A stretch of DNA of 64,000 nt from assembly GCA_963920525.1 (NCBI GenBank), contig OY986439.1, positions 29,317,819 to 29,381,818 on the forward strand. The letters run 5' to 3'. The position numbers and the translations under genes are program-made. Shown here one piece after another: positions 20,007 through 40,144 of the stretch. The DNA comes from Dichetophora obliterata. Its lineage: Eukaryota > Arthropoda > Insecta > Diptera > Sciomyzidae. Numbering within the stretch: the first letter of the stretch is position 1; every line of letters begins with the position of its first letter. Under the pieces are notes generated by a model. The model was not told the origin of the DNA. It made no database searches and worked only from the letters and a program-made list of their open reading frames with translations.

Positions 20007-20572
20007 TGTTGTAATCGGTGCTATTTTTATCGCCAAATTGCTCCGGTCATAGGGGGCGGGAGCAATTTAGCGCGTAAAAATAACACGCGCGCGCGATGAT
20101 AGGCTTTCGGTAGCCTACCATCTTGAGGTTAGAGTTAGGAGCTAAAATTGAGGAGAAGAAGTTGTGCTCCTCATTAACCACCAAAGGTTGTAGGGATCTC
20201 TGTTAAATGAAGAGTATCATTTAACAGAAATAACTCCACAAAATTTGGTTATTAATTAGGGGGTAATTAATAACAAATTAAGTAGTGCGTTTTTGAACAT
20301 ATTTATTACCTTATCGGCTGGTGGTTGAAATGAGAAGCAGGAAAATTAACAAAAGAGAATATGTACATTGCAATTTCAAGTAAGCTTAAGGACCAGCTTT
20401 TAAGCTGGGTTTAGTTTACAGTATTTTAAGTTCATAATTTAAACTTTCAATTAAAGCCGCAGGCTTGAGCTGCGTTTAGTTACAAAAGTAAATTTAAGAA
20501 TAAAAGTAAAAGAGTAAATTCATAAACTTCATTTATATGAAAACCATTTGGATACGCATCGGGGCGTAGACA
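20007..20572 (-). repeat. Element A 3' LTR (566 bp)
   Basis: On the plus strand it starts TGTTGTAATCGG and ends GCGTAGACA; on the element's own strand it also runs TG...CA. It contains palindromic motifs (CCAGCTTTTAAGCTGG at about 20395, and a GCAGGCTTGAGCTGC hairpin near 20459), a TATAAAT near the start of the minus-strand LTR, and an AATAAA on the minus strand near 20305. The same sequence flanks the right end in two pieces. Confidence 0.93.
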
Positions 20573-20590
20573 TGCCGCCCGCCTTGCACT
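20573..20590 (-). promoter_or_regulatory. Candidate polypurine tract of element A
   Basis: Immediately before the 3' LTR on the minus strand is AAGGCGGGCGGCA. It is purine-rich though interrupted by C residues. In a retrotransposon the tract that primes plus-strand DNA synthesis lies here. Confidence 0.6.
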
Positions 20591-20598
20591 AGTGCAAT

Positions 20599-21115
20599 TT
20601 ACAAGATACTCTGCAGCCGCTGAAGCTCACGGATGGCGTTTAAAAGGTGTTCCCGTGGACTTTCGCTGCGATTGGTGCCAGTCGATCGTGTACATGCCCT
20701 GGAGCGCCCGGTTGGCTGAGGCGACTGTAGTCGTTGGCGAGGCCGTGAGCGCCCTTCCGAAGCGTTAGGCTGTACCCGTTGACGTACAGGCGAAGGCGAC
20801 GGACTGACTCTTCGTCCCAGTCGGTGAGCTATGCCGCTTGCTCTCTTCTTGGTGGTTTTGCCGGCTCGCCGGTTTGAGTCGGACTGGATCGTGATGCGTT
20901 TTTGGTTCGCATGCAGCATCGAGTGGTGGAGACCCTTGCACACATTGCACACGGCTTTGGACGTACATCTTCCGGCTGTATGGGAGCGAGCGAGGCAGTT
21001 CGAACAATAGCCATGTCGAACCACGGCCTGGCGACGGTGCAGGACAGACATGGCCTTAAATTTTTTGCAGAATCGGATGGAATGTCGCCGCTGGCACAGT
21101 TGACATTCATAAAGC
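20599..21115 (-). CDS. Element A zinc-knuckle protein, exon 2
   Basis: The exon opens after a textbook acceptor (branch-like CACTAATA, then CGGTTTCTTTCTCTAG at about 21116-21131, minus strand) and stays open for 517 nt to the stop next to the polypurine stretch. It encodes three Cys/His modules: CQLCQRRHSIRFC (CX2CX3HX4C), CSNCLARSHTAGRC (CX2CX4HX4C) and CNVCKGLHHSMLH. A Ser/Arg/Pro-rich basic tail follows, then a C-terminal leucine-rich helix (REHLLNAIRELQRLQSIL). NCLA-x-SH and C-x2-C-x3-HH-x2-LH spacings are typical of BEL/Pao-type Gag nucleocapsid regions, which bind nucleic acid. The first complete codons before the internal Met at 21051 already contain a zinc module, so a start at that Met would cut the domain. 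Joined to exon 1 the product is 180 aa. No protease or polymerase follows. Confidence 0.75.
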
Positions 21116-23404
21116 CTAGAGAAAGAAACCGAAAAGTTTATTAGTGCATGGCATAATTGTAGAGAGAACTATGTTAGCTGGGTTATTGAATGACTAGGGA
21201 TAAGTCATGTACGAGTGAGAAGTGAGAGTATAGTGTAGCATTGATTGAGTGAGAGCTAGAATAAACATGAGAGATATGAGTAACTAAAAAATGTAACTAG
21301 ACGGTGAGCTGATGTTTGGGAGTTACAAGGGATAAGAGACATATGAGTGAGAAGTGCGAGTGTACTGTATAAATAGAGGGATTATGTGAGGTGAGAGACC
21401 CATGACTAGAGATGAGTGATTCTGAAAGTGAGATGAAAAGAGAGTCGGAGAAGTTTCGAGAGGAGAAGAAAGTATTCGTATTTCATAAGTATTGCTCGGG
21501 ATGGCAACTCTGAAATATCGGGAAAGTTTTAAGAAGTAAAGAAAAGTCTTCATATTTCATAAGTATTGCGCGAGGTTGGCAACTCTGAAGTATAAAAAGA
21601 CGAATTTTGAGAACTTAAGAGAGTATTCAGAAGTTGCGCGGAGTTGGCAACTCTGAAGTATCGTCGGACTTGTTTGGAGAGAAGTGAAGAGTCGTAGAGT
21701 CTTGAAGTAAAGATGTCAGTATAAAAATGTTGAGAATTGCCCGGGTTGGCAATTTTGAAAGAAAGTCAGGAGTATTTGGAGCAGAGATAGAGAACATTAA
21801 AGTGTATTTACAATATTCAGTAGTTGCGCGGGGTTGGCAACTCTGAAGTAGAAAAAAGAAGAGTTTTGAGATAAGATGTGAGGAGTTGAAATATTCAGAA
21901 TTGCTCGGGGTTGGCAATTCGGAAATAAAATCAGGTGCATGTGGAGAAAAAGAGAGAAAATGAGAGTATTTAAAAATATCCAGAAGTTACGCGGGATTGG
22001 CAACTCTGAATATACGTTGAAAATTTTGTAGAACAGATGTAAAGAGCTGCAAATATTCAGAATTGCTCGGGGTTGGCAATTCTGAAATATCGTCTGAAGG
22101 TGTTGAGAACAAAGAGATAAAATTAATAGTAGTTATAAATATTCAGAAATTGCGCCGGGTTGGCAACACTGAATCGTCGTCAGGAATTTTGGATAAAAGA
22201 GGAAGAACACAAGATTATGGTTAACATATTCAGAATTGCTCGGGTTGGCAGTTCTGAAATCGCTTCAGAAGTTTAAACACAGAGAAAGAGGCTGAGAGTG
22301 CAATTTAACGAACTCTAATTCGGCTTGAGTTAATTAGAGTTACTTCTCCCGCCTTTTCTGTGAATTCTCTGCTATTAATAAACCATCGCTTTAAGCATAT
22401 GCTCAATTTGCTCGAGTTTGGTTAGTCTACCATATCGGGAAAAGTTTTTCAGAGAATTTTCTCACAATACTTTTACACATAATACTTTTATACATAATGA
22501 AAGTGTTCAGAAGTCGCGTGGGATGGCAACTCTGAATATAAGAGAGAAGAGATGAGATGACGCAAAAAATTTGAGAGAAAATTTTTTGCTTGATTGAAAT
22601 TAAGAGTATCTAGAAGTTGCGCAGGGTTGGCAACTCTTAAAATATCGGGATAAGTTTTCGAGAAAAGATGTAAACAGCTGAAATATTCAGAATTGCTCAG
22701 GGTTGGCAATTCTGAAATAAAGTGTATTTAGAGGAAAGAGAGAGACCATAGGAGTGTTTAAAAATATTCAGAAGTTGCGCGGGGTTGGCAACTCAGAGGT
22801 AAAGTAGAAGTATTGAAAACAGGACGCGAGTATTCAGCATTTCGTATTGCCCCTGGTAGCATCTCTGAGGTATAGTTGAAATATCGTGAACAGGAACCAA
22901 GTAATCAGCAGTTGCGCGGGATTGGCAACTCTCGCGCGGCTGATCCTCCCCGATTTTTATTGACACTTGTGCGGTCAGCCGTGAGAATGGCGAAGAATTT
23001 AACGTTGCGCGAGTATGGCAACTGAAAAATCATGAAGAGTCCGGAGAAAGCGTAAGCAACCTAGTGAACATTTTTAGAGTATTCAGAGTTACACGAGTTT
23101 GGCAACTCTTAAATATTAGGAGCATTTTTTGAGATCGTAGGCAGAGAAGTAGAGCGTATTTAACTTACTCAGAATTGCACGGGGTTGGCAACTCTGAATT
23201 TTCGAAATTGTTGAGAAACAATTTTTTTTTTCAATAAAAATGTTTTAGAATGAGTTTCGATAAATAGTGTATTTTTCATATATGTTCAGAAATTCAGATT
23301 TGATCGGAGTTGGCAACTCTGAATTTTCCGCGATTTGTCCAGAGAAAAATCTTCAAATTCTTTAATAAACACCTTTTTGAGTGTTTATTAAACTCTCCTT
23401 GCAC

Positions 23405-23938
23405 GGAGTTGGCAACTCTGAATTTGTTATAAAAAATATTGAGAATTTTTTATAACAAAGAGTGTAGAGGAAAAAAAATTTTTTCTTCAGCTTCAATGCT
23501 TTTGAAAAAAAAAATTGAGATATTCAGCGTTGCACGGAGTTGGCAACTCTGAATTTTGTATAAAAAATATTGAGAATTTTTTATAACAAAGAGTGTAGAG
23601 AAAACAAATTTTTTTCCTTCAGCTTCAATGCTTTTGAGAAAACAAATTGAAATATTCAGCGTTGCGCGGAGTTGGCAACTCTGAATTTTGTATAAAAAAT
23701 ATTGAGAATTTTTTATAACAAAGAGTGTAGAGGAAAAAAAAATTTTTTCTTCAGCTTCAGTGCTTTTGAGAAAAAAAATTGAAATATTCAGCGTTGCACT
23801 GAGTTGGCAACTCTGAATTTTGTATAAAAAAAATATTGAGAATTTTTTTATAACAAAGAGTGCAGTGAAAAAAAAAATTTTTTTTTTCTTCAGCTTCAAT
23901 GCTTTTGAGAAAAAAAAATTTAGATACTCAGTGTTGCT
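23405..23938. repeat. Four tandem ~132-bp higher-order units
   Basis: GGAGTTGGCAACTCTGAATT recurs at 23405, 23536 and 23668, and with changes at about 23800 and 23939. Each is followed by AAAAAATATTGAGAATTTTT, CTTCAGCTTCAATGCTTTTG and the next hairpin arm. Similarity is high, so this amplification is younger than the rest of the array. It creates a spurious 166-codon minus-strand ORF. Confidence 0.88.
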
Positions 23939-23960
23939 CGGAGTTGGCAACTCTGAATTT

Positions 23961-24225
23961 CGTAAAAACTTATTGAGAATTTTAAGCCAGAGAATGTAAT
24001 AAAATCGTAAAAATATTGAGAATTTTTAACCAGAGAATTTAATAAAAATCGTAAAAATATTGAGAATTTTTAACCAGAGAATTTAATAAAAACCGTCAAA
24101 ATATTGAGAATTTTTAACCAGAGAATTTAATAAAAATCGTCAAAATATTGAGAATTTTTAACCAGAGAATTTAATAAAAATCGTCAAAATATTGAGAATT
24201 TTTAACCAGAGAAAGTAATAAAAAA
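23961..24225. repeat. Six tandem 44-bp units without the hairpin core
   Basis: Units of AATATTGAGAATTTTTAACC, AGAGAATTTAATAAAAATCG (plus a few bases) repeat with few differences. They derive from the spacer of the 132-bp unit. Confidence 0.85.
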
Positions 24226-24821
24226 TTTTCCTTCAGCTGCAGGGCTTACGAAAAAATTAGCGATGTTCAGCGTTGCTCGGGGTTGGCAACTCTGAATTTC
24301 GTAAAAAATATCGAAAAATTTTTTTAAAGACAAGTGGGGAAAATTCTTTTGCTGCCGAGTGTACTTTGTTTGGTATTATATAAGTGAGGCAACGGAGCTT
24401 TTTTTTCCTATAATATGAGTGTATGAGTGTGTGTGTGTGTGGTTTGCGAGTTGGTGCAAAAATATATATATGGAGAATATATTTTTAAAAAAAATACCTT
24501 CCGCCCTTGGGACTCCCAACAAGGGTCACTCCAGGTTGCTACGAAATGCAGCTAGATCTGCTGCTGCAACGCAATGCTGTGCTTTTTGCAGCCGTTGATA
24601 GCACCACCGAAAAAAAATGGAAATCGTGGGCACTGTTGGGATCTTTTTGAGGTTAGATGCTAAATTTTAGATGCGTTTTAATTTGGTAACTTGCCAAACT
24701 TAGCCGCTGCCACTGTTGTGCACACAAAGAGATTGGCGCTGCTTTTTTTTCTTTTTGTTCTTTGTTGTCTCGGTTGCTTTGCACAATTAAAAAATTTATT
24801 GAATTCTGTGTTGTTGCTTTT

Positions 24822-25290
24822 TTTTTCACAATCACTTATTGGCACTTAATTTTATTGAATTTATTTAATAAATACGCTGTTTGTGTTCTATTTAGAAGTT
24901 TTCTTGAGTTTCAGTATATTTATTTTATGAGGTATTAAAACGAATGAAATTATAAACGCCAATAGTTTATAGAGCTAAAATGAAACGCAACGCACGACGG
25001 TTGGAAAGAGAATGTGCGATTTCTATGATTTTCTTTTGATGCTTGTTTTTTAGCACACACACAAACTCAAAGTTATGACTTTCAATTTTTTTTTCACAAT
25101 CACTTATTGGCACTTAATTTTATTGAATTTATTTAATAAATCCGCTGCTTGTGTTTTACTTAGAAGTTTTATTGAGTTTCAGCAACTTTATTTTTTGAGG
25201 TATTAAAACCAATGAAATTATAAACGCCAATAGTTTATCGAGCTAAAAGAAACGCAATGCACGACGGTTGTAAAGAGAATGTGCGATTTC
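24822..25290. repeat. Direct duplication of ~205 bp flanking the LINE site
   Basis: The block at 24822-25023 (from TTTTTTTTCACAATCACTTA to GAGAATGTGCGATTTC) recurs at 25085-25290 with about a dozen differences. It lies in the element A intron. The LINE inserted just right of the second copy. Confidence 0.85.
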
Positions 25291-25304
25291 GTTGCCGGTT
25301 TGCG

Positions 25305-25319
25305 CTTGACCACGACACT
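25305..25319. repeat. 15-bp target duplication of the LINE (3' side)
   Basis: CTTGACCACGACACT here and at 30732-30746 are identical. They bracket the LINE exactly, as expected for target-primed reverse transcription. Confidence 0.92.
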
Positions 25320-25783
25320 CAATTTCAATTTCAATTTTTATTGAGACTTTGCTTTTCTAATGACATAAATTTAATACAGTACAATGTTTATGCTAGGCAT
25401 ATAAAGATTTTAGACTATAATGTTTTATCTAAAATGAATGACTTAACTAGGGATACAAGCTTCATGCTTCGATATGAAGTGATTAAAACAGGGTTGCTGT
25501 TAATACAATAGTTGATTGCAAATTAAAATTTATATGAGTGTTGCTCAAGACTCAACAATGACTTTTAGAGGAATTATCTCAAATTCTTACAGCTATCTAT
25601 ATACATTATATTCCTTAAAAATAAATAACCAACAAGTAAATACATTGAGAGGTATTTTTACTAAAATATTGTTAAGGAATTACTTAACTATATGAAGGGC
25701 ACAATATGGATTACTTTAAAGAAGATTTAAATTTTGTAATTAATGATTAACATGAATATAATATGAATATGTAAAATATATCG

Positions 25784-28687: not shown

Positions 28688-30326
28688 AAAACATAAGAAC
28701 TTCTTTTAATAAGAGCATATACTCGGATTTAGCTTCTTCTTTTGGAAGTGACTTAAATTTATATAAAAAATTTCTTATTTTTTCTTCAAGCGAAGTTAAA
28801 GATGGCTCTTGAAAGTGCCGTGCTAGATTAAGGAATTCATCAATGAGTGGCGATTTATGAGAAAATTTTAAAGTATTGGGTTGCGAATAAAAATGACTAG
28901 CATATGATTTTTCAGGAGTTTTGCGATTAAACGTTGCCTCAACAACATTGCGTTCTGCAGTAAGCAGTTTTTTTTTGTTTTCAATTAGTGAGTTTTTTTT
29001 CTTTTGTAAATATATTTTAAAAGCTGGACACCCTCTATAATTGGAGGGGTGGCCAACATTTTTACAGTTGACACAATAGGGTTTAGAAGGGTCATCCAGA
29101 GCTCTACCACACGAACCTGGTTCATGTTCCTCATTGCATTTGACACACGCAAATTTTTTGTTGCAGTTTTTTGCGATATGCCCCCACTGTTGGCAACGTT
29201 TACATTGAATCACTAATCTATTAGCTTTGGGTGCTTCCCAAGAAATTACTTGACTTAAAATGAATTTAACTTTTAAAAGATCTTTTATTGACCCGCCAGG
29301 GACCAAGGTTATTAGAAATAACCCAGAGTCAATATTATTTGCCTTGGAATTGCGCGTAATAAATTTGTTAACTCCTGCAACTAAACCCGGAACTTGTGAT
29401 TCAAGATCCTTTTTAATGTCTTCGACAACAGTTTTATAATAGAGCCCTCGCAGCACCATTGTAGGCTGTCTAAATTCAGGAGGGGTAAAAGAAAAAGAAT
29501 CCACACCCTTGCTTTTAAGTAGATCCATCATCTCAGTGTAAACAGCAATATCCTTAAACAGAATTTTGCTTTTATATTTATTTTTATTTATTATTTTGAA
29601 TTCAATTTTGGGGGTTTTGGAGTTCAATTGACTGACTAAGCTGTCAATATCGACATTAAATAAAAAAATCGGAGGACAAAATGAATTTTTGTTTTGCTTG
29701 ACAGATAGCCCAGTGTCTCTACCCGAAGTATTTATAACATGACTATTATTATTTAATAAGTTAGAATTATTAGTAAAATTGACATTAGAACCAGTAGACT
29801 TATCAAGAATGTCCGCGCTAGTCCGGGAAGGAATTGTGATGTCCAGATCTCCGAGAATTGCAAATCGATTTTGAGATTCAAGCGTTAAATGAGTAGAAGA
29901 TTTAGAATAATCAGATGATCTTTTGAGCCGCTTTTGTTCAACTTGAGTGAATCCATCGGCATCATCTGAACTCTTTGAAGAAATGTTGTTGTTGTTGTTG
30001 TTGGTGTTGAATTGCATCAACATTTCAGCTGCGTTTATCGTACCAGGCGACGATACATTTGTATAATCCATGTTGGACGGAATATCACTAGTGACTCCTT
30101 GCCAAGAGCAGCCTGCTTCGAATTCGGAGCGATGTATTGATGTTTTGTTTAATGTTGGGAGGTCGACGTTATTTGCATCGCTCAGTGTTTTACGCGTTAA
30201 TAAAGATGGCTTTGAAAAAGCGACGCTGTTCTTTTTTATGCCGCCATTTTGTGAATACCGACGATTTTCGGGAGGCTTTGCTTTTTTGTGTACACGCACA
30301 CTTGAAGCGCCGTACAGTTTGAACAT
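28677..30326 (-). CDS. LINE ORF1: Gag-like RNA-binding protein
   Basis: A 549-aa nucleic-acid-binding protein expected to package LINE RNA into ribonucleoprotein particles. Three zinc knuckles lie at about residues 374-435: CKRCQQWGHIAKNC (CX2CX4HX4C), CVKCNEEHEPGSC (CX2CX3HX4C) and CVNCKNVGHPSNYRGC (CX2CX3HX6C). This spacing set is the one used by Jockey, Doc, F and the fly telomeric LINEs. The region before the knuckles (about 215-370) matches the usual RRM-like part of these Gag proteins. The N-terminal third is Ser/Asn-rich and low-complexity. The frame is intact and ends in TAA overlapping the ORF2 ATG. Confidence 0.94.
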   Translation of the reverse strand: MFKLYGASSVRVHKKAKPPENRRYSQNGGIKKNSVAFSKPSLLTRKTLSDANNVDLPTLNKTSIHRSEFEAGCSWQGVTSDIPSNMDYTNVSSPGTINAAEMLMQFNTNNNNNNISSKSSDDADGFTQVEQKRLKRSSDYSKSSTHLTLESQNRFAILGDLDITIPSRTSADILDKSTGSNVNFTNNSNLLNNNSHVINTSGRDTGLSVKQNKNSFCPPIFLFNVDIDSLVSQLNSKTPKIEFKIINKNKYKSKILFKDIAVYTEMMDLLKSKGVDSFSFTPPEFRQPTMVLRGLYYKTVVEDIKKDLESQVPGLVAGVNKFITRNSKANNIDSGLFLITLVPGGSIKDLLKVKFILSQVISWEAPKANRLVIQCKRCQQWGHIAKNCNKKFACVKCNEEHEPGSCGRALDDPSKPYCVNCKNVGHPSNYRGCPAFKIYLQKKKNSLIENKKKLLTAERNVVEATFNRKTPEKSYASHFYSQPNTLKFSHKSPLIDEFLNLARHFQEPSLTSLEEKIRNFLYKFKSLPKEEAKSEYMLLLKEVLMFYGP

Positions 30327-30746: not shown

Positions 30747-30908
30747 TATTTCTTCGATTCTACTTTCTACTCTCATAGAGAGAATGACTTTTTACTGCGA
30801 TTGCTGTTGAAAAAGATTTGTGGCGAGTTGCATGCAGCCTGCCACCGACCCCACACTCTCACAACTCCACACCTTCAAAAAAAAAAACAACACAATTGGC
30901 AGCTTTCC

Positions 30909-30914
30909 GCTCAC
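30909..30914 (-). promoter_or_regulatory. Predicted 5' splice site of the element A gene
   Basis: AAGAG followed by GTGAGC on the minus strand matches the donor consensus well. It sits 26 nt after the first good ATG downstream of the primer binding site. Confidence 0.65.
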
Positions 30915-30940
30915 CTCTTTCCTTTCCCTGTGGTTGGCAT
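30915..30940 (-). CDS. Element A zinc-knuckle protein, exon 1
   Basis: ATG at 30940 opens a 26-nt coding exon of 8 codons plus two bases, in a leader of about 170 nt after the primer binding site. The two leftover bases (AG) are completed by the G that begins exon 2 at 21115, so the reading frame continues directly into the first zinc module. The encoded start is short and basic (MPTTGKGK). I infer the pairing from frame agreement, the strong donor and the strong acceptor. No transcript evidence is available here. Confidence 0.62.
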
Positions 30941-31098
30941 ACTTTGTAGTTGATTGATGTGTAGGAACCAAATGTTGCCTCTGTTTATGGATGATGCTGA
31001 AATTGTAGAGCTTAATTATTTATTTAGGGTTAATACATTTTATGGGTTTTGAATGGATACACCAGTGGAGTATGTAATCCATTGCGGTTCTGGGTGAA

Positions 31099-31110
31099 CT
31101 CGAAGGACCA
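31099..31110 (-). promoter_or_regulatory. Primer binding site of element A
   Basis: TGGTCCTTCGAG begins directly after the terminal CA of the 5' LTR on the minus strand. TGG at this position pairs with the CCA end of a tRNA primer. The primer tRNA was not identified. Confidence 0.8.
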
Positions 31111-31197
31111 TGTTGTAATCGGTGCTATTTTTATCGCCAAATTGCTCCGGTCATAGGGGGCGGGAGCAATTTAGCGCGTAAAAATAACACGCGCGCG
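31111..31197 (-). repeat. Element A 5' LTR, inner fragment
   Basis: The first 87 bp of the plus-strand LTR sequence match 20007-20093. The LTR is then interrupted by the errantivirus and resumes at 39662. It includes one copy of the CGCG target duplication. Confidence 0.93.
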
Positions 31198-31957
31198 AGT
31201 TATGTTCCTTGCTTAGAGCAGTTTGATTGAAACACACTTTTCTTTTCTGCTGTAAACTTAGAACTGAACTTTATTACAACTCTTTCTTAAAATCTAACCA
31301 ATTCGTTTTCGAAATGTAAATGTGTAAAAGTATGTAAAGATATAAATGGAAGAAATACAATTGTAAAATAGGAGAAATGTAATGTATGTAAAAGAAATAC
31401 AATGTGGTTAATATGTAAAAGTTAATAGTCGCAAAGTGTTGCCTAATTTATAGTTGCAACATAATATCAAAAATGCAAGGGTTTCATTTTAATGTCTTGT
31501 GGTTAATATGTAGAATAAATAATCGTAAAATGTTGCCCAATTTATGGTTGCAACATAATATCAGAAATGCAAGAGTTTGATTTTAATGTTATATTTTAAA
31601 ATTGAACCTATTTTAATAGTTGCGATTTATGAGGAAAAAAATAAAGAAAGAGTGTAAATAAAATTGGAACACTTAAAATATCTTATTGATTACGCTGCAC
31701 TTTAAGTAGTGCAGTGGGGCTTATTATGTTGTTGTTTCTGGTGCTATTGTTGTGGGTGCCGAGATTTAATTGCCGTTTGTGCTGTTGTTGTAAATGTAGT
31801 AACGATGTCTTTGACTTGTTGGTTAATTTGGTATTGTTGTTGTGTTTGTTGTAATTGTTACTGTAAGTGTTGCAGCGGCGTATTGAGCCTCGATGGTTTG
31901 GGTGGTGGCTGAGAAGTATATGTATTTGTTGTTGTCGTTTGAGTGGGGGTCGTAACT
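31198..31957 (-). repeat. Errantivirus 3' LTR (760 bp)
   Basis: Same length as 38902-39661 and no difference noticed by eye. On the minus strand AATAAA lies at 31275-31270, about 70 nt before the LTR end. The last codons of env lie inside it. An internal ~95-bp block is tandemly duplicated (about 31404-31500 and 31498-31590: TGGTTAATATGTA..., GTTGCAACATAATATCA). Confidence 0.95.
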
Positions 31958-33549
31958 CCTCCCCCCCCAGTATGAAGTGAGGGCCATAAAGATTGTGCAG
32001 TGGCCCTTACGAAATTGGTTTGCGGTGTATAAATTGATGCCATTATTTTCCTAGGGACGTAAATGAAGATCAGGACAAGGATTACAATTAACGTATATTG
32101 CAGTGCGTCTTGGGCATATGTAATTGTGCTGAGGTGTTTAACTGATGCGTAGCTTTCGATTTGATGGTCGCGAAGTTTTTCCAAGTTTAGGGCTTCGGTT
32201 ACTGACAGGGCTTGTATTCCTGAGTGTGTTATTGGCAGGATATGTATCTCGTCCCAGAAAATTCCAACATTGCTCTTGTAGATGATACCTCTTATAGCGA
32301 TGTCGCAGTTCTGGAAATGAATAGCACCGGTACCTTCAACTGTGTATTGTCTTTGACTGCAAGTAGAATTTATTAGTGTATAGGGTATATTAATATAGAC
32401 GATAAAGTTGGCTTCTGGCTGGAAGATTGTTGTTATCTTTCCGAGGTCATACAGGTCGCAGTGTCCAGGTTGATTTTGCATGAGCTGCCCCAGGCATTTA
32501 GATTCTTGAGTGTTTTCTTTTTGGATTGGTTTTTGGCAAAAGTATATTTTAGATATTCTTTGGCATGTTTTGTCGAAAAACTGAATTGTTTTGTTATTGT
32601 AAGTTATGTATGATTTTGTTATTATTTGCTTTGTTATGTTTATAGGGGTAGGTATAATATGATATAGCTGATAATTTTCTGTATAAAGATTAGGTATTTG
32701 AACATTGAATATGACATTAGAATGATTATAATATGCTTGTAATTGTAATAGTTCGTATATTTCTTCATCTGTTTCAATTTTAATGGATTGATTAATCATA
32801 TAATTTCTAATTTCTTGTAACTCTTTTTGGTTTAATATAAGCTTGGATATAATGTTTAGTTTGGCTAATAGTATGGCTTCTGCTATGTCTGTGATATGAT
32901 TGAATAAAATATCTATATTGTAGTTAAGTTGGTTAAGATATTGCATTTCTTCTAGAATATTTTCATTTCTTTTAATTTTATTGGCTGTTTCTTTTGAATA
33001 TTTGTTTACAAATTTTTCAATTGTGCTATGTTCATTATTCATGTGTTCAGTAATATTTTTAAATCTTGCGATCATTTGCATATTCAATTTGTTTTGATTG
33101 ACCGATTCTTTTTGTAAGTTTTCTTCATTTTCTTTTAATTTTGTTATTTCATTATTTAAATTTTGTGCATCAACCGCATCCATGTTTCCTGTAATAAACT
33201 TTACTACTGATCCTAGTCCATTCAAGATACCCCTTTTTTGTCTAGCAACAGGTGATAGTGTTTGAATTTTATTCTTTAGTTCGAAAAGTTTCATTTCAGT
33301 TACTTTTATAAGATTTGGTTGTATACCTTGTGCTTTAATTTCAGTAAAGGTAGTGGATAATTTGTTAATGTTTTCATGGTATTTGTCTAGGTCGATTATA
33401 TGGATTAAATTGTTATACCCTTTTACTACTCGTGCCGGTCCGAGTCTGAGTGGAATTATACCTTGGTTATCTTTGACGTTATGAATCTCTATTAACTGTC
33501 CAATGACCAGTTGTACCCTAAAAAGTGAAAATATACAAATATAATGCAA
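31858..33549 (-). CDS. env: Errantivirus env: class I-like fusion glycoprotein
   Basis: A 563-aa envelope precursor of the insect errantivirus type, related to baculovirus F proteins, expected to be made from a spliced RNA and to mediate cell-to-cell transfer. Visible features: a hydrophobic N-terminus (about 1-18) that may act as signal peptide; a furin site RQKR at 103-106 followed by a glycine-rich fusion-peptide-like segment (GILNGLGSVVKFITG); long amphipathic helices (about 115-240); several N-glycosylation sequons; and a membrane segment near 485-500 (IVILVLIFIYV). The frame does not stop before the polypurine tract: it reads through it and about 33 codons into the 3' LTR, giving a Pro/Thr-rich tail. 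The frame is intact. The ATG starts 48 nt after pol ends. Confidence 0.9.
   Translation of the reverse strand: MHYICIFSLFRVQLVIGQLIEIHNVKDNQGIIPLRLGPARVVKGYNNLIHIIDLDKYHENINKLSTTFTEIKAQGIQPNLIKVTEMKLFELKNKIQTLSPVARQKRGILNGLGSVVKFITGNMDAVDAQNLNNEITKLKENEENLQKESVNQNKLNMQMIARFKNITEHMNNEHSTIEKFVNKYSKETANKIKRNENILEEMQYLNQLNYNIDILFNHITDIAEAILLAKLNIISKLILNQKELQEIRNYMINQSIKIETDEEIYELLQLQAYYNHSNVIFNVQIPNLYTENYQLYHIIPTPINITKQIITKSYITYNNKTIQFFDKTCQRISKIYFCQKPIQKENTQESKCLGQLMQNQPGHCDLYDLGKITTIFQPEANFIVYINIPYTLINSTCSQRQYTVEGTGAIHFQNCDIAIRGIIYKSNVGIFWDEIHILPITHSGIQALSVTEALNLEKLRDHQIESYASVKHLSTITYAQDALQYTLIVILVLIFIYVPRKIMASIYTPQTNFVRATAQSLWPSLHTGGGGVTTPTQTTTTNTYTSQPPPKPSRLNTPLQHLQ
31958..31968 (-). promoter_or_regulatory. 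Errantivirus polypurine tract
   Basis: GGGGGGGGAGG on the minus strand directly abuts the 3' LTR. It lies within the env reading frame. Confidence 0.9.
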
Positions 33550-33597
33550 GCTAAAAGTGCCTATTGGAAAAAAAAATTCGAGGTATAATGTTAAAAT

Positions 33598-36500
33598 TTA
33601 TGGTTTATTTTGTTTTCTTAGTTTGGATTTGTGTAATTTTTGGTCTTTTATTGTGGTTAATGTGACTTTTTTATTGCGTTTTACTTTATGTTTTGTGAAT
33701 CTAGGAGTCATTTTATTTCTTCTATTTTCTTTTCTAAATATGGTTTTGTTGCTGTCGAAATTTTCGGGTTCGTCTCTAGTTACATTGATTTTATCTATGT
33801 TAAGGCTTGTAATTTGTTTAAGCTGTTCACATATTTTTGGGTATAGAATCTCCTGATATTCTTTTAACTTTTGAAGGTATTCGTGTTCATTGTGAAATGA
33901 AATTATGTTATTGAATTTGTATGTTCTGCCAAAAAATAACTCGTAGGGAGTGTGTTTGGTGGCGGAGTGAATTGCGTTATTGTAAGTTATAAATGTTTCT
34001 GCTAAAATTTCGTCATGTTCAAGAGATAGATTGTTTTCTTTTCGAGTTGTAAGTAAAATTCTGTAAATTTCAGTTAAAGTGGAATGCATACGCTCTACTG
34101 GAGAATTACTACTCGATTGTTGGAATGACGTAAAATGCAGTTCTATTTGGTACTGACGACAGAAGTCCTTAAATATATTTGCCATAAATTCTTGACCTTG
34201 GTCACATACAATTTTTCGAGGTGTACCGTAAACACTGATGTATGTTTTTAATGCTTTTAGGATGGATACGCTATTTTTCGATTGTAGATTATAACCTGCT
34301 CCGAACTTAGAAAATTTGTCAATTATTGTTAAGATAGGGTGATTGTTAATTGTATATATATCGATGTGCAAAATATCGAGTGGCTTAATAGGTGTTTCTG
34401 GTTTTTCAAATTTTGTTTTAGGGGGATTCCTATCGTATTTTTGAGTTTTGCAGGTTTCGCAGTTATTAATTGTTTGTGTGATTTTATTTTTCATAAATGG
34501 AAAGTAGTACTTTCTTTTGAGATGCAAATGTGTTTCATTTATTCCTCTATGGTTATGTCGATTGTGATAATCCCTAATCAACTGTTCTTGTTCGTCGCTT
34601 TGTGTTATGTCCTGTAATATTTCCATGCAGCGTATTACACGGAATATTTGGGTATGTGAAAAATATTTGGAGTATACATCCTGGACTATTCTGAATGTAT
34701 CGTCATCCGTATAGATGGCAGATAATTTATTAGGTGCCATATAGTTTTTTAAAATTTGAGTAATACTGTCTTCATTAAAATTAGTTTTTCGGATTATGCG
34801 TCTTTGTTTATTTCTAAATGGAATTTCGACTGTGATTTCAGGTGCTTGGCTTGATATTTGTAGAATTATTTGTAGATTAAAATCGTTTAGTGGTTTTTCG
34901 GAAATAGCTATTCCATCGTTGAGATTTTCTATAGCAGAGTGAATTGTGCTTCCGTTTGTAGCGTGATTAGATTCTGTATCGTTAATGTTTACGTCCACGT
35001 TAGTGTTTGGTTTATCCTGTATTATTCTGCTTAAAGCGTCGGCATTTGAATTAAGCTTTCCCTTTTTATAGACTATCTCGTAATCATACTCCTCTAATTT
35101 AAGGCGCCAGCGAATGAGTTTAGAGTTGGGTTCTTTCAAACTCATAAGCCAGGTTAGAGGTCTATGGTCAGTAACTATCTTGAATTTTCTACCATAAAGG
35201 TATGGCCGAAAGTACTTAGTCGCCCACATAATGGCGAGTAACTCTTTTTCTATAGTAGAATAATTTGTTTCCGAGTCGGAAAGCGTTCTACTCGCGTAGC
35301 AAACTGGCTTATCACTGCCTATAGTGCCTTGGGATAAGACTGCGCCTAGAGCATAATTACTAGCGTCTGTTGTGAGAATAAACGGTTTGGAGAAGTCTGG
35401 ATACTGCAGTATTGGGTCATTTGTTAAAAGGTGTCTACATGTATTGAATGCCTGTATATATCGATCATTAATTACGATTTTCTTGTCTTTTTTTAGGCAC
35501 TCAGTAAGAGGTTTTATAAGTTTTGATAGATCTTTAATGAATTTTCGGTAATAACCTAGTAACCCAAGAAAAGCTTTAATTTGTTTCCTAGTTTGCGGAA
35601 TTGGATAATTTTGGATGGCTTCTATTTTGGAAGGATTTGGTTTGATACCATCTGTTGATACAATGTGTCCCAGGAACGCTACTTCTTTATGCAGGAACTC
35701 TGACTTGTCTAGTTGGATTTTGAAGTTTGCCGAACGTAATTTTTCAAAAACTTTTTCAAGACTTTCAAGATGTTCTTGAAGAGAAGTTGAGTAGATTATT
35801 ATATCATCTAGGTAGACAAGACAAATTTTTCCTACTAATTCTCTAAGAACATTGTCCATCACTCTCTGAAACGTTGATGGAGCGTTCTTTAGACCGAATG
35901 GCATTCTTATGTATTCATAGTGACCACCTTCTACTGTGAACGCAGTTTTTTGTATATGTTTATGATGCATTTCTATTTGATGAAAACCGCTTGCTAAGTC
36001 AAGCGTAGAAAAATATACACATTTACCTAGTTTATCCAGAATTTCATTTATATTGGGGAACGGGTACCTATCTGATATTGTTTTTTCATTAAGCTTCCGA
36101 TAGTCTATGACGAGGCGCCACTTTTGTTTTCCACTGGAGTCCTTTTTCTTTGGAACGATCCAAACGGGAGAACTCCAAGGGGAATAGCTATGGCGGATTA
36201 TTCCCTGTTGAAGCATTTTTGCGATTTGACATTGTACCTCGTCTTTGTGGACGTATGGATATCTGTACGATTTGGTGTAAATTGGAATGTCATCTGTTGT
36301 GGATATTTTGTGCTTAATTTCGTTGGAGAATGTTAATTGTTCTCCTTCTTTGTAGAATACGTCGTTATTTTTCTTACAGAGTTTCAATAACTTTTGTTTT
36401 TCTTCTGAATTCAGATGGTCTAATCTGAGAATTTCTGATAAGTCTACAAAGTGGTTTGGGTCATAAGTATTATCTGGGTTTATATTATTTAATTCGACAA

Positions 36501-37164
36501 AGTCAGAAGTGTTGTAAGTGTTTACTTTAAGAGGCTGTTCAAGAAAAAGGGATTGTTCATTTTCAGAAAAATTTATTACTTCCAGTGAAGCAACCCAGTT
36601 TTTTGATTCGTATATACCTTCTGATATAACTAAGTTAGGTTTAAGTTCTGTGTTTCTGAGATAAATTGATCCATTTTGAGTGTCTACTGGCAATTCAATA
36701 ACTGTTTTAGATCTAGGTGCAATCAAGTATTTTTTTGATATTATATTTGGTTTAAATTGTAGATTAATAGTTGAGTTTTGTGTATTAAGTGATTTGCTAA
36801 CAAGATTAACTGTTGCACCGAGTTGAGTAAGGGCATCAAGTCCGATTAGTCCATCGAAATAATTATGGAATTTGAAGAGAAGGAATATGAGATTACCGCG
36901 TTGATTGAATTCACGAAATATAGGTAATGATACTTGCTCATTAAGAGTATATTTTCCAAGTATAGTAGAGATTGAAGTTAATTTACATTTTTTAATATCG
37001 TCCTTATGTATGAATTCGGGATTAATAAATGAGGCTGACGCTCCCGTATCTATAAGAAATCTCAATGGTCTACCAAAAGGGGATGATATGTTAACATATG
37101 CTAGCTCAGATCCATGTCTATTTACGTCTATGTATCCTGTTGGTTCGGTGAGGCTGATCGGAAA
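33598..37164 (-). CDS. pol: Errantivirus pol: protease, reverse transcriptase, RNase H, integrase
   Basis: About 1188 residues when entered by -1 shift from gag. Domains in order: aspartic protease (LIDTGAS near residue 40); reverse transcriptase (RLVIDYRKLN near 350, RMPFGLKNAPSTFQ near 420, catalytic YLDD near 450, LGYYRKFI near 530); RNase H (TTDAS near 596, then ATKYFRPYLYG and TDHRPLTWL); integrase zinc domain HX3H...CX2C (866-901); and the integrase core with HIDIY near 933, CDQGQE near 987 and PVERMHS near 1022 carrying the D, D and E. A basic tail ends the protein. The first in-frame start-like codon is a TTG at 37065, but the frame is open upstream to the shift site, and the protease lies too close to that TTG for it to be the real start. 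No stops or frameshifts. Confidence 0.95.
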   Translation of the reverse strand, partial: FPISLTEPTGYIDVNRHGSELAYVNISSPFGRPLRFLIDTGASASFINPEFIHKDDIKKCKLTSISTILGKYTLNEQVSLPIFREFNQRGNLIFLLFKFHNYFDGLIGLDALTQLGATVNLVSKSLNTQNSTINLQFKPNIISKKYLIAPRSKTVIELPVDTQNGSIYLRNTELKPNLVISEGIYESKNWVASLEVINFSENEQSLFLEQPLKVNTYNTSDFVELNNINPDNTYDPNHFVDLSEILRLDHLNSEEKQKLLKLCKKNNDVFYKEGEQLTFSNEIKHKISTTDDIPIYTKSYRYPYVHKDEVQCQIAKMLQQGIIRHSYSPWSSPVWIVPKKKDSSGKQKWRLVIDYRKLNEKTISDRYPFPNINEILDKLGKCVYFSTLDLASGFHQIEMHHKHIQKTAFTVEGGHYEYIRMPFGLKNAPSTFQRVMDNVLRELVGKICLVYLDDIIIYSTSLQEHLESLEKVFEKLRSANFKIQLDKSEFLHKEVAFLGHIVSTDGIKPNPSKIEAIQNYPIPQTRKQIKAFLGLLGYYRKFIKDLSKLIKPLTECLKKDKKIVINDRYIQAFNTCRHLLTNDPILQYPDFSKPFILTTDASNYALGAVLSQGTIGSDKPVCYASRTLSDSETNYSTIEKELLAIMWATKYFRPYLYGRKFKIVTDHRPLTWLMSLKEPNSKLIRWRLKLEEYDYEIVYKKGKLNSNADALSRIIQDKPNTNVDVNINDTESNHATNGSTIHSAIENLNDGIAISEKPLNDFNLQIILQISSQAPEITVEIPFRNKQRRIIRKTNFNEDSITQILKNYMAPNKLSAIYTDDDTFRIVQDVYSKYFSHTQIFRVIRCMEILQDITQSDEQEQLIRDYHNRHNHRGINETHLHLKRKYYFPFMKNKITQTINNCETCKTQKYDRNPPKTKFEKPETPIKPLDILHIDIYTINNHPILTIIDKFSKFGAGYNLQSKNSVSILKALKTYISVYGTPRKIVCDQGQEFMANIFKDFCRQYQIELHFTSFQQSSSNSPVERMHSTLTEIYRILLTTRKENNLSLEHDEILAETFITYNNAIHSATKHTPYELFFGRTYKFNNIISFHNEHEYLQKLKEYQEILYPKICEQLKQITSLNIDKINVTRDEPENFDSNKTIFRKENRRNKMTPRFTKHKVKRNKKVTLTTIKDQKLHKSKLRKQNKP

Positions 37165-38429
37165 AAATTTTGATCATCTTCAATGTTATTGATGTCTTCT
37201 ATTGAGTCATCTGTATATTGATCTAATTGTTGTTGGTAAGAGGTATTGGGGCGTTGGGTCCTTGGATTTTTATTTATGTTATGAAATTCTTCTGTTCTTG
37301 GTCTTGTCATCCTGGAAAATTTAGAACGCATGCTTACATCGGAATTATTATTCCTTTGAGATACAGTGGAGTTTTTAGTGTTTGTAAAACCTGAACTTGT
37401 GTCCATTGGTTCTGGTTGTGGTTGTCTGGCAGAAAATGACGAATTGTTATTATTGTTGTGGTTATTTCTAAAAGGGTTATGATTAGGATTAAACCTATTG
37501 TATGTTGGTGGGTTATTAAATCGGGACTGGTTTGGGTTATATGTGTTTTGGTAGTAATTTGATGTGTTTGGATTATAGTTAGACGTATTTGGTGTAAAGT
37601 TACGTGGGTTTTGCATTCTTGCTGGATATTTATTGAACGTATTATATGGCTTATATTGTTTACTCTGATATGTGTTTCTTTCTGATCTCATGTAATGAAT
37701 ATTTTGTTCTTTTATACAGTAGGCTAAAGCAGTGGCCAAGGATTCTGGCCTCATAGCCCTAATGTTTGAGCCAAGTGGCTCTCTAAGACCACTTAAAAAT
37801 GAGTTTAGACACATTTCCGCAAATAGTTCTTTTTTTGCTGCTACAACATTTTGATCACTTTCGTGTATCAAAATATTGTTGCACAGTGTAGCCTGAATTT
37901 CTATTATTTCACTGAAAAAATTTTCTACAGTTTTGTTGTATTGTCGTAAGTTGTGTAAATCCCTAATAAGTGAAGTCTCCGATCTTTTGTCAGAGTAATG
38001 CAGAATTAAGTTAGTTTTTATGTTTTCCCAATTGAGTGACGTTCCGTACATATTTAGTACTTCGTTTGCCTGACCGACTATCTTATTTCGTATTGCCCTT
38101 AGTAGTATTTGTCCTTGAGGCGTATGACTAGCACCTCTTGTATGTAACAATATTTCCTCTACGTTATTTAGAAATTCGTATAGTAGTCGAGGATTGCCAT
38201 CATATTGAGGCAAATCCTTTATTGCATCTGGAATGCGAAGTGACTGAAAAATATCCACATATACAGGGGCAGGGGTGGGAAGGGTTGGGATGGGGGCTGT
38301 ATTTTCCATAGTAAATTCTCTACTTGGTTCTTCTAGAATTGAACTAAGGCTTCTGCTTTTAAAAAGATTACTGAGGGAAACTGAATAGGGCTGATTTTCT
38401 GCACGTTTTTTCTGGGTTTTTTTCCACAT
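37128..38429 (-). CDS. gag: Errantivirus gag: capsid precursor
   Basis: A 433-aa structural protein that assembles particles. The central part (about 60-240) has the errantivirus/gypsy capsid look, with PQYDGNPRLLYEFLNNVEEILL and RDLHNLRQYNKTVENFFSEI motifs. The C-terminal part (about 260-370) is strongly Asn/Tyr/Pro-rich. No Cys-His zinc knuckle is present; basic Arg/Asn-rich sequence may take over RNA binding, as is usual for errantivirus Gag. The ATG at 38429 follows a leader of about 470 nt after the primer binding site. The last 43 nt overlap the pol frame, where the slippery site lies. Confidence 0.92.
   Translation of the reverse strand: MWKKTQKKRAENQPYSVSLSNLFKSRSLSSILEEPSREFTMENTAPIPTLPTPAPVYVDIFQSLRIPDAIKDLPQYDGNPRLLYEFLNNVEEILLHTRGASHTPQGQILLRAIRNKIVGQANEVLNMYGTSLNWENIKTNLILHYSDKRSETSLIRDLHNLRQYNKTVENFFSEIIEIQATLCNNILIHESDQNVVAAKKELFAEMCLNSFLSGLREPLGSNIRAMRPESLATALAYCIKEQNIHYMRSERNTYQSKQYKPYNTFNKYPARMQNPRNFTPNTSNYNPNTSNYYQNTYNPNQSRFNNPPTYNRFNPNHNPFRNNHNNNNNSSFSARQPQPEPMDTSSGFTNTKNSTVSQRNNNSDVSMRSKFSRMTRPRTEEFHNINKNPRTQRPNTSYQQQLDQYTDDSIEDINNIEDDQNFFRSASPNQQDT
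37164..37170 (-). promoter_or_regulatory. Probable -1 ribosomal frameshift site (A AAT TTT)
   Basis: On the minus strand the heptamer A-AAT-TTT is in the correct X-XXY-YYZ phase with the gag codons. The -1 frame is open from here into pol, and gag stops 36 nt later. No downstream pseudoknot was modelled. Confidence 0.8.
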
Positions 38430-38892
38430 GAATTTTTTTCTTTGTTCTTTTTTTTTTATTGAATAAAATTGTTAACGTATTGAAATTTTTCTTTTCTTAT
38501 CCCCTTTTATTGAAAAAATTTATTTGTTTTATTTTTAAGCTTTGTTTTATTTAATTATTTTTCAGTTTTCGACTTACATGCTTCCAACGATGATGATGAT
38601 TAACTGCTTTAGCTGCATGATGCTTGTTGTTCGCTAGTCGTCCTTTCAGAGCGTTGAGTTCCAATGGCGATTAAAAGTTGATACTTAACCGATCTTGTGA
38701 AAAAAAAAATGTGCTGATATTCAGTCAACACTTATTTCAGAATATTATGTATCGATATTCTCTCGATAATAACTTCTGATAATTACAATAATTTTAGTTC
38801 GATATTCTTTCGAACAATTATTTTATCACTTATTCTTCAAATAAGAAGGATACTGATTATTCACTATTCACAAGATGGTTCGCCAAGCCGTA
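38430..38892 (-). other. Errantivirus leader between primer site and gag
   Basis: About 460 nt of AT-rich untranslated leader. No long ORF. Packaging signals and the env splice donor would be expected here but were not identified. Confidence 0.5.
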
Positions 38893-38902
38893 GACTGCGC
38901 CA
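38893..38902 (-). promoter_or_regulatory. Errantivirus primer binding site (tRNA-Ser type)
   Basis: TGGCGCAGTC on the minus strand, sharing its first T with the last LTR base. It complements the 3' end of fly serine tRNA (GACTGCGCCA), the primer used by 17.6 and 297. Confidence 0.88.
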
Positions 38903-39661
38903 GTTATGTTCCTTGCTTAGAGCAGTTTGATTGAAACACACTTTTCTTTTCTGCTGTAAACTTAGAACTGAACTTTATTACAACTCTTTCTTAAAATCTA
39001 ACCAATTCGTTTTCGAAATGTAAATGTGTAAAAGTATGTAAAGATATAAATGGAAGAAATACAATTGTAAAATAGGAGAAATGTAATGTATGTAAAAGAA
39101 ATACAATGTGGTTAATATGTAAAAGTTAATAGTCGCAAAGTGTTGCCTAATTTATAGTTGCAACATAATATCAAAAATGCAAGGGTTTCATTTTAATGTC
39201 TTGTGGTTAATATGTAGAATAAATAATCGTAAAATGTTGCCCAATTTATGGTTGCAACATAATATCAGAAATGCAAGAGTTTGATTTTAATGTTATATTT
39301 TAAAATTGAACCTATTTTAATAGTTGCGATTTATGAGGAAAAAAATAAAGAAAGAGTGTAAATAAAATTGGAACACTTAAAATATCTTATTGATTACGCT
39401 GCACTTTAAGTAGTGCAGTGGGGCTTATTATGTTGTTGTTTCTGGTGCTATTGTTGTGGGTGCCGAGATTTAATTGCCGTTTGTGCTGTTGTTGTAAATG
39501 TAGTAACGATGTCTTTGACTTGTTGGTTAATTTGGTATTGTTGTTGTGTTTGTTGTAATTGTTACTGTAAGTGTTGCAGCGGCGTATTGAGCCTCGATGG
39601 TTTGGGTGGTGGCTGAGAAGTATATGTATTTGTTGTTGTCGTTTGAGTGGGGGTCGTAACT
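38902..39661 (-). repeat. Errantivirus 5' LTR (760 bp)
   Basis: Starts AGTTATGTTCC and ends GTCGTAACT on the plus strand, equal in length to 31198-31957. The promoter should lie here, in minus orientation. Confidence 0.95.
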
Positions 39662-40144
39662 CGCGCGATGATAGGCTTTCGGTAGCCTACCATCTTGAGG
39701 TTAGAGTTAGGAGCTAAAATTGAGGAGAAGAAGTTGTGCTCCTCATTAACCACCAAAGGTTGTAGGGATCTCTGTTAAATGAAGAGTATCATTTAACAGA
39801 AATGACTCCACAAAATTTGGTTATTAATCAGGGGGTAATTAATAACAAATTAAAAGGTGCGTTTTTGAACATATTTATTACCTTATCGGCTGGTGGTTGA
39901 AATGAGAAGCAGGAAAATTAACAAAAGAGAATATGTACATTGCAATTTCAAGTAAGCTTAAGGCCCAGCTTTTAAGCTGGGTTTAGTTTACAGTATTTTA
40001 AGTTCATAATTTAAACTTTCAATTAAAGCCGCAGGCTTGAGCTGCGTTTAGTTACAAAAGTAAATTTAAGAATAAAAGTAAAAGAGTAAATTCATAAACT
40101 TCATTTATATGAAAACCATTTGGATACGCATCGGGGCGTAGACA
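39662..40144 (-). repeat. Element A 5' LTR, outer fragment
   Basis: Continues the LTR interrupted at 31197, matching about 20090-20572 with about six substitutions (for example AAATGACT for AAATAACT, and AAGGCCCAG for AAGGACCAG). It begins with the second copy of CGCG. Confidence 0.93.

What the first reader, a model, noticed from the sequence alone, without database searches (positions are those of the whole stretch)
20007..40144. Candidate undescribed element: a pol-less LTR retrotransposon with a spliced zinc-knuckle gene and an intronic hairpin array
Element A has paired 566-bp LTRs, CACAT duplications and a primer binding site. Its only gene seems to be two exons (30940-30915 and 21115-20599) that join in frame to 180 aa with three Cys/His modules. 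The intron carries about 26 hairpin repeats, so they would be present in genomic RNA but removed from the mRNA. Retroviral packaging signals use the same logic by lying downstream of the splice donor. A plausible model: the zinc-knuckle protein, or the nucleocapsid of an autonomous BEL/Pao helper, recognises the hairpins on unspliced RNA. The function is inference; the architecture is read from the sequence.
Basis: partly seen in the sequence, partly recalled or inferred. Interest (0 to 1): 0.9.

Follow-up and report, generated by a model that had tools for sequence, protein, structure and literature searches.

The report
Gag-pol-less fly retrotransposon with accessory gene
A fly-like genome holds a young BEL/Pao retrotransposon family, some copies of which have lost their replication genes but keep a small, apparently spliced zinc-finger gene and many copies of one RNA hairpin, which makes it a good place to test how such elements select their own RNA.

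Summary
Element A (minus strand, 40144-20007) has 566-bp LTRs, an ATGTG duplication, a primer site and about 24-26 hairpins. An env-bearing gypsy-type element sits in its 5' LTR and a LINE in its intron. In the window's genome (G000, 1.31 Gb), 41 matches of full length to exon 2 stand at 94% identity or more, 40 of them free of stops. All 10 copies examined that keep the leader have the exon-1 ATG and a GTGAG donor in one phase. Eight other fetched LTR pairs (L031-L035, L038-L040) have the array and no gag-pol match. L037 has the same LTRs, exons and knuckle protein plus a BEL/Pao gag-pol frame. Four further families or subfamilies carry the 3' knuckle gene directly behind pol, and related proteins occur in Haematobia, Lucilia and Drosophila. 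So A looks like a mobilised non-autonomous derivative of a BEL/Pao lineage with an accessory gene, a diverged second set of Gag-type knuckles, in the env position. G-U versus A-C counts suggest that the hairpin acts as sense RNA. Splicing, and the hairpin's reader (Gag or accessory protein; packaging or export), are inferred. Eight paper searches listed no description of this gene.

The parts
20007..20572 (-). 3' LTR of element A, 566 bp
   Evidence: 39 further places at 95-97% among the 40 scored of 260 candidates in G000
20573..20585 (-). polypurine tract AAGGCGGGCGGCA next to the 3' LTR
   Evidence: the 25 nt before the 3' LTR are identical in the 11 other same-orientation pairs
20599..21115 (-). 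exon 2: three Cys/His knuckles, basic Ser/Arg/Pro-rich linker, C-terminal helix; 171 complete codons plus stop, accessory gene
21116..21136 (-). 3' splice site with pyrimidine tract, ..TTTCTTTCTCTAG
   Evidence: AG kept in the 18 exon-2 copies examined; upstream changes in L037, L047, L050
21479..24300 (-). hairpin array, 24 strict units (about 26 with degenerate ones); includes 132-bp (23399-23983) and 44-bp (23960-24224) tandem repeats
24350..25317 (-). 5' internal non-coding region with a 163-bp direct repeat (24818-24980 / 25086-25248); this region is repeated more often in L035 and L040
25318..30731 (-). nested LINE (ORF1 553 codons, ORF2 973 codons with endonuclease and RT), 13-bp duplication TGTCGTGGTCAAG; not part of A
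30913..30914 (-). 5' splice site GT (AAAGAG|GTGAGC)
30915..30940 (-). exon 1 coding part, 26 nt from the ATG
31099..31110 (-). primer binding site TGGTCCTTCGAG (tRNA-Tyr by recall)
31111..31197 (-). 3' part of the 5' LTR of A
   Evidence: 87/87
31198..39661 (-). nested env-bearing gypsy-type element B (frames: gag 37131-38471, pol 33601-37173, env with Baculo_F 31861-33597; LTRs AGTTA..TAACT, CGCG duplication); not part of A
39662..40144 (-). 5' part of the 5' LTR of A
   Evidence: 477/483

Best explanation
Element A is a non-autonomous (gag-pol-less) member of a young BEL/Pao family. Gag-pol-bearing members of this and related families carry, between pol and the 3' LTR, an accessory gene apparently made by splicing a short leader exon to a 3' exon. 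Its product is a diverged second set of Gag-type nucleocapsid knuckles with a basic linker and a C-terminal helix. The spliced mRNA would lack the hairpin array; the unspliced, genomic RNA has it. Inferred mechanism: A's unspliced RNA is reverse transcribed from a tRNA primer and integrated by the Gag-Pol of helpers such as L037, and the sense-RNA hairpins are the marks by which zinc knuckles (Gag's, the accessory protein's, or both) pick unspliced RNA for packaging or nuclear export. Losing gag-pol while having 19-27 hairpins instead of the 2-3 of L037 would let A compete for that machinery. Shown: anatomy, copies, shared LTR/primer site/exons, BEL/Pao identity of the partner, purifying selection between families. 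Supported: the hairpin is a sense-RNA structure. Inferred: actual splicing, trans-mobilisation, which protein reads the hairpin and for what step.
For: Paired-LTR copies with target duplications and 0-9 LTR mismatches (L031-L040). Partner L037: 3' LTR 99.8% to pol-less L038, 98.3% over 3.1 kb on the 5' side, 99.0% over 1.3 kb on the 3' side; gag-pol pieces match DUF1759, Peptidase_A17, H2C2 and DUF5641 over cut-off. 10 of 11 gag places at 96% or more have an exon-2 match 5.1-7.1 kb downstream on the same strand. Exon 1/donor in 10 of 10 leader-keeping copies, also where blastn no longer aligns the leader (L032, L033). In L051/L052 the first ATG after the primer site runs 71 nt to AAG|GTAATT, same phase, and the 3' gene follows pol; same order in L053, L054, L056. 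40 of 41 full-length A-type exons open. Exon 2 pN/pS 0.33 over 13 distinct copies; A versus L051 knuckle part pS 0.915, pN 0.244. Hairpin: 97.5% of inner cells paired, outermost inner pair GC14/AU5/GU4/other 1; over 116 distinct units G-U 35 versus A-C 7. Same hairpin in L057, 5' end of the L054 element. L031 copied the primer tRNA beyond the primer site.
Against: No RNA data: splicing rests on conserved signals and phase. L052 has other donor-like sites further down (361, 562), so its donor is chosen by eye. The hairpin's reader is untested. Control: sliding the partner by +3 gives a higher covariation score (0.264 against 0.205) and more pair types, and the count of pairs changed on both sides does not exceed shuffles; only cells paired, cells changed on both sides and the score exceed them. 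L051 has hairpins of another sequence. The contrast in hairpin number rests on one complete helper (L037); the gag-bearing L054 element has at least nine. Helper use is inferred from shared ends. An upstream ATG (leader position 29) precedes exon 1 in the A-type leaders. Selection among pol-less copies (0.28) rests on 14 variable codons, 7 of them with amino-acid change. Confidence lowered from 0.62 to 0.60 on re-check for the +3 control and the single helper.
Confidence: 0.6

Rival explanations
1. Rev/CERV-like export: the accessory protein, made early from spliced RNA, binds the intronic hairpins in the nucleus and exports unspliced RNA through its C-terminal helix (possible NES). Packaging is left to Gag.
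For: 3' gene whose supposed target lies in its intron; basic exon 1 in A, L032, L034 and L052; hydrophobic C-terminal helix kept in A, L051, L053 and L054 and in most database relatives, pLDDT about 86-92. Precedent: CERV of Cer1, spliced, Cys-rich, needed for genomic RNA export (PMC10309623, abstract and passages).
Against: A and L054 share the hairpin but their accessory proteins are 45% identical, no closer than A and L051 (45%), whose hairpin differs. The NES is by eye only. L056's reading lacks the helix.
Confidence: 0.25
2. Packaging signal read by Gag nucleocapsid; the accessory protein is an RNA chaperone or assists assembly in trans and A keeps it only because the copies are young.
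For: The gag 5' piece of the L054/L057 element, which has the same hairpin, is 89% identical in DNA to L037's; the hairpin goes with the gag end. Array larger in the gag-pol-less copies than in L037.
Against: Hairpin and gag 5' end are neighbours, so shared ancestry of that segment explains the link too. Exon 2 may stay under purifying selection among pol-less copies (pN/pS 0.28; small numbers).
Confidence: 0.35
3. The accessory protein is a Gag-like fragment that limits the element in trans (copy-number control or interference, as the yeast Ty1 Gag fragment p22 does; recalled), and pol-less copies spread it.
For: It consists of nucleocapsid-type knuckles without capsid or enzyme.
Against: A very young gag-pol-bearing family keeps it (39 exon-2 rows with one score; LTR pieces printed as 100% over 403 bases), which is odd for a pure inhibitor.
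Confidence: 0.1
4. The hairpins act as DNA (protein binding sites, insulator) or are passive satellite-like expansion by slippage during reverse transcription.
For: LTR-to-LTR distance varies in the L051 type (9.2-11.9 kb in 18 pairs) and repeat number varies between A-type copies; tandem repeats expand easily. Slide +3 control.
Against: G-U 35 versus A-C 7 favours sense RNA; stems kept although spacer lengths differ.
Confidence: 0.12
5. Element A is a decayed BEL copy and the exons are coincidence.
For: This copy is broken by two insertions.
Against: Dozens of copies with open exon 2, kept splice signals and similar LTRs.
Confidence: 0.02

Closest known systems
BEL/Pao LTR retrotransposons (Belpaoviridae)
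   Same: TG..CA LTRs, 5-bp duplications (10 of 11 fetched pairs), and in the partner L037 gag-pol pieces with DUF1759, RT-like match, Pao peptidase A17, integrase H2C2 and DUF5641
   Different: extra 3' zinc-knuckle gene with splice signals, and a hairpin array; A itself lacks gag-pol
Non-autonomous LTR elements: LARD, TRIM, TR-GAG (search listings only; definitions recalled)
   Same: LTRs, primer site, polypurine tract, no pol, helper needed (inferred)
   Different: keeps an accessory gene that is not a full gag, and a large hairpin array
CERV of Cer1, C. elegans (PMC10309623; abstract and passages)
   Same: accessory protein from a spliced mRNA, Cys-rich; genomic RNA must leave the nucleus unspliced
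   Different: Cer1 is gypsy-like; CERV exons 1-3 share gag's frame and it has no obvious homology outside nematodes; no hairpin array in the passages seen
sORF2 of the MDG1 group (PMC11952523; passages only)
   Same: small accessory ORF in an env-less insect LTR retrotransposon
   Different: sORF2 is a transmembrane, fusogen-like protein in MDG1-group elements; here a zinc-knuckle protein in BEL/Pao

Membership tests
BEL/Pao, partner L037 and family L051 | Pao-type pol: A17 peptidase, RT, integrase, DUF5641, with DUF1759 gag | tested here: met
   Pfam on pieces: DUF1759, A17, H2C2, DUF5641 over cut-off in both; RVT_1 27.8 and 28.0 of 29.6, rve 27.1 and 22.9 of 32.6, i.e. below cut-off
BEL/Pao, element A of the window | encodes Pao-type pol | tested here: not met
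   no match to L037's gag-pol pieces by blastn, and by tblastn only the knuckles; filed as a non-autonomous derivative by shared LTR, exons and 3' part
LTR retrotransposon | paired LTRs, target duplication, primer site, polypurine tract | tested here: met
Non-autonomous LTR element mobilised in trans | several copies of one deleted structure at different sites with own duplications | tested here: met
   L031-L035 and L038-L040; use of a helper was not observed
TR-GAG | gag kept (definition recalled) | tested here: not met
   no DUF1759 part; only knuckles
Rev/RRE- or CERV-like export system | protein needed for export of unspliced RNA | not testable with these tools
   needs RNA localisation
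Retroviral-type packaging signal | structured RNA downstream of the major donor, bound by nucleocapsid | tested here: inconclusive
   position and structure found; binding not tested
env gene | membrane-anchored fusion protein | tested here: not met
   no Pfam family over cut-off in exon 2; model shows knuckles, disorder and one C-terminal helix

The most novel reading that the evidence does not exclude
A widespread but overlooked regulatory module of dipteran BEL/Pao elements: a spliced nucleocapsid-like accessory protein and an intron-borne array of RNA hairpins form a Rev/RRE-like or packaging switch that sorts unspliced from spliced RNA, and gag-pol-less copies parasitise it by multiplying the hairpin.
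Probability: 0.27. Interest if true: 0.85.

Novelty: new variant of a known kind. Interest (0 to 1): 0.62.

Why it matters
How LTR elements without env tell genomic RNA from mRNA, and how non-autonomous elements compete for a helper's machinery, are open questions with few natural test systems. Here one genome offers a helper-like copy and pol-less copies with near-identical ends that differ roughly seven- to tenfold in the number of a short hairpin (one helper read), and a conserved accessory protein that would be made only from spliced RNA. The gene would also add a class to the accessory genes of insect LTR retrotransposons.

Tried and rejected
Rfam scan: nothing at gathering score. No tRNA gene found in the window. 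Pfam has no model over cut-off for exon 2. Single-sequence protein search: 81 candidates, none at E <= 0.001; an alignment of five families then found 19. IMG/VR scan: 8 pattern matches, no relative. RNAfold G-U counts over whole units do not separate strands (14 sense, 19 antisense); only the fixed inner-pair count does, made on units found by a loose consensus, with 43 other mismatches, not corrected for relatedness. One search's +3 slide beats the structure on covariation score. The tree (21 rows, 65 columns, 12 of 18 inner branches open, bootstrap not settled) has only two Gag rows of these families; six database rows (P0007, P0010, P0011, P0013, P0014, P0016; two of them read and followed by a protease) group on the accessory side, so the tree does not say from which Gag the accessory knuckles came. 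It dropped P0012, P0015, P0017-P0019 (pattern not matched). Slice errors: the frames of the L053 and L056 accessory pieces were wrong; their identities there are ignored. L058 proved to lie outside the element aimed at. The fuzzy search missed exon 1 in L032/L033; it was seen, where an in-frame start further upstream is also possible. The structure model (mean pLDDT 65.5) was used only for the first knuckles and the helix. Paper searches (accessory gene; non-autonomous elements): no listed paper whose title or abstract start names a spliced zinc-knuckle accessory gene in BEL/Pao; listed papers other than PMC10309623 and PMC11952523 were seen as listings only; most subscription papers are not held.
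Full report
WHAT IS IN THE WINDOW. Element A lies on the minus strand from 40144 to 20007. Its 3' LTR is 20572-20007. Its 5' LTR is cut in two by an env-bearing gypsy-type element B (39661-31198; Pfam gag, protease, RT/RNase H, integrase, Baculo_F), with CGCG on both sides; the two parts match the 3' LTR at 477/483 and 87/87. The outer duplication is ATGTG. A LINE with two frames sits at 30731-25318 with the 13-bp duplication TGTCGTGGTCAAG. What remains of A inside is a leader with a primer site, a non-coding region, the hairpin array and one open frame before the 3' LTR.

THE EXON PAIR IS CONSERVED. G000, the window's genome, has 1.31 Gb in 76 contigs. The LTR has 260 candidate places; 40 were scored, giving 41 matches: the window's own, 39 at 95-97% and one short piece at 73%. 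I fetched 20 regions, chosen by LTR similarity: 11 hold a same-orientation LTR pair (L031-L040, L048), one an inverted pair (L041), eight one LTR only. Target duplications are 5 bp in 10 of the 11 pairs (L038 reads CTAT); LTR mismatches are 0-9 in L031-L040, and 17 with 19 gapped columns in L048. Of these 11 pairs and the window's, 10 keep the leader, and all 10 have an ATG, a short basic open stretch and the donor GTGAG in the same phase (26 nt in eight, 23 nt in L032 and L033). In L032 and L033 the leader gave no blastn match to A's, yet the exon is there. L031 and L048 lack the leader; their LTR is followed by TGGTCCTTCGAGCCGGATA, in L031 with about twenty further nucleotides, which I read as copying of the primer tRNA beyond the primer site; that the tRNA is tRNA-Tyr is recall, not a call. 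The acceptor AG is kept in the 18 exon-2 copies examined (window, L031-L040, L045-L048, L050, and L041 twice). In the genome, 41 matches of 510-513 bases cover residues 1-171 at 94% identity or more, 40 without a stop; one more (C1:130961446, 97%) is shortened inside (150 of 3,395 candidates scored). These include the window and the fetched copies.

A PARTNER WITH GAG-POL EXISTS AND IT IS BEL/PAO. L037 has the same LTRs, leader, exon 1 and exon 2 (protein 100% identical), and between them a frame of 1,799 codons. In pieces it matches DUF1759, Peptidase_A17, H2C2 and DUF5641 over cut-off, RVT_1 (27.8 of 29.6 bits) and rve (27.1 of 32.6) below it. Its 3' LTR is 99.8% identical to that of pol-less L038, and the two agree at 98.3% over 3.1 kb on the 5' side and 99.0% over 1.3 kb on the 3' side. 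Its gag-pol pieces give no blastn match in the window's A, L031-L035, L038-L041 or L048, nor in L042-L045, L047 and L049 (one-LTR stretches); by tblastn the A-type copies match only in the knuckles. Partial gag-pol is present in L036 (first 145 bases of gag, end of pol), L046 and L050. A gag piece of L037 finds 11 full-length places at 96% or more; 10 have an exon-2 match 5.1-7.1 kb downstream, start to start, on the same strand, three of them partial or in two pieces. A rejoins L037 about 12 bases behind the pol stop.

THE ACCESSORY GENE IS OLDER THAN A. Exon-2 matches at 42-48% over the whole length form further families. In L051 (39 rows with one score; its LTR piece is listed in 18 pairs 9.2-11.9 kb apart, each printed as 100% over 403 bases) the knuckle frame lies behind a 1,805-codon BEL gag-pol frame and before the 3' LTR. 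Its leader has a TGGTCCTTCGA primer site, and its first ATG is open for 71 nt to AAG|GTAATT, the same phase; other donor-like sites lie further down. L053, L054 and L056 show the same order: pol end (73-78% identical in protein to L037's), 0.1-0.2 kb gap, knuckle frame (L056 has frame breaks in pol and a different tail). The gene holds Gag-type knuckles: A exon 2 against L037's Gag 44% over 77 residues. In a 65-column tree of 21 rows the five accessory rows and the two Gag rows of L037 and L051 lie on two sides of a 98/97 branch, but six Gag-like rows of another lineage fall on the accessory side, so its exact source is open. An alignment of five families finds 19 database proteins, five named: two from Haematobia irritans and one each from Lucilia cuprina, L. 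sericata and Drosophila takahashii; one contig protein (P0003) carries DUF5641 directly before the knuckles. Of the 13 read, P0007 and P0010 look like ordinary Gag knuckles followed by a protease. Selection: pN/pS 0.33 among 13 distinct A-type sequences; A against L051 pS 0.915 and pN 0.244 in the knuckle part; pol-less copies alone 0.28 over 8 distinct sequences with only 14 variable codons. The model (mean pLDDT 65.5) gives confident residues 1-50, a poor middle and a confident C-terminal helix 153-170 whose hydrophobic pattern recurs in most relatives.

THE HAIRPIN. Strict units: window 24; pol-less pairs L031-L035 and L038-L040 19-27; L036 5; L037 2 (3 with one variant); L048 2. The units are more stable than their shuffles. 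In 24 aligned units 97.5% of inner cells pair, and one pair occurs as GC 14, AU 5, GU 4, other 1; three of five measures exceed 499 of 500 shuffles, two do not, and a slide of +3 columns scores higher on covariation. These units are paralogues, so this may be few events. Over 116 distinct units from all fetched sequence, G-U pairs outnumber A-C mismatches 35 to 7 (43 other mismatches), which points to sense RNA as the paired molecule. L057, the 5' end of the L054 element, has nine such units. Its gag 5' piece is 89% identical in DNA to L037's although the accessory proteins share only 45% and the pol ends 73% in DNA. L051/L052 have 25 matches to a hairpin of another sequence and none of this type. 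So hairpin type goes with the 5'/gag end, not with accessory type. This leans to Gag as reader, but linkage explains it equally.

HOW IT PROBABLY WORKS. Full-length RNA is genome and Gag-Pol mRNA; splicing the leader exon to the 3' exon would remove array and gag-pol and yield the accessory protein, as in retroviral env splicing. The hairpins would mark unspliced RNA. Knuckles of Gag or of the accessory protein read them for packaging or for export; CERV of Cer1 is the nearest tested precedent that I saw for the second (PMC10309623, abstract and passages). A has dropped gag-pol, keeps the splicing unit, and has many more copies of the mark than L037.

LIMITS. No expression data. Only part of the copies could be fetched. 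One complete helper was read. The paper library lacks most subscription journals.

Noticed in passing
L041 (G000:C1:134375299-134382228): A copy with two 3' halves head to head: LTRs in inverted order at both ends, flanked by the same 5 bases AACTG, i.e. seemingly an integrated inverted dimer.
   Followed up: partly
L031, L048 and L057: LTR followed by a longer antisense match to the primer tRNA (TGGTCCTTCGAGCCGGATA..) and then soon by array sequence: a fossil of reverse transcription past the usual stop.
   Followed up: partly
window 39661-31198: Env-bearing gypsy-type element with three long frames (LTR identity 707/708 over the compared stretch) inserted in the 5' LTR of A at CGCG.
   Followed up: partly
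window 61227-63069: 307 copies of TTAGAC at 99% matches; another 6-base array follows at 63502-64000.
   Followed up: no
window 51175-51908 and 16163-16930: Long near-perfect arrays of AACAT (147 copies) and ATAGATATAG (77 copies).
   Followed up: no
window 41989-42567: Open frame that looks like a mariner-type transposase fragment (by recall; no Pfam match at E 0.1).
   Followed up: no
L051 family: 18 LTR pairs with near-identical LTR pieces but 9.2-11.9 kb between them; whether array length causes this was not read in other copies.
   Followed up: partly
L054/L057 against L037: Mosaic: gag 5' piece 89% identical in DNA, pol end 73%, accessory protein 45%: the two ends may have different histories.
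   Followed up: partly
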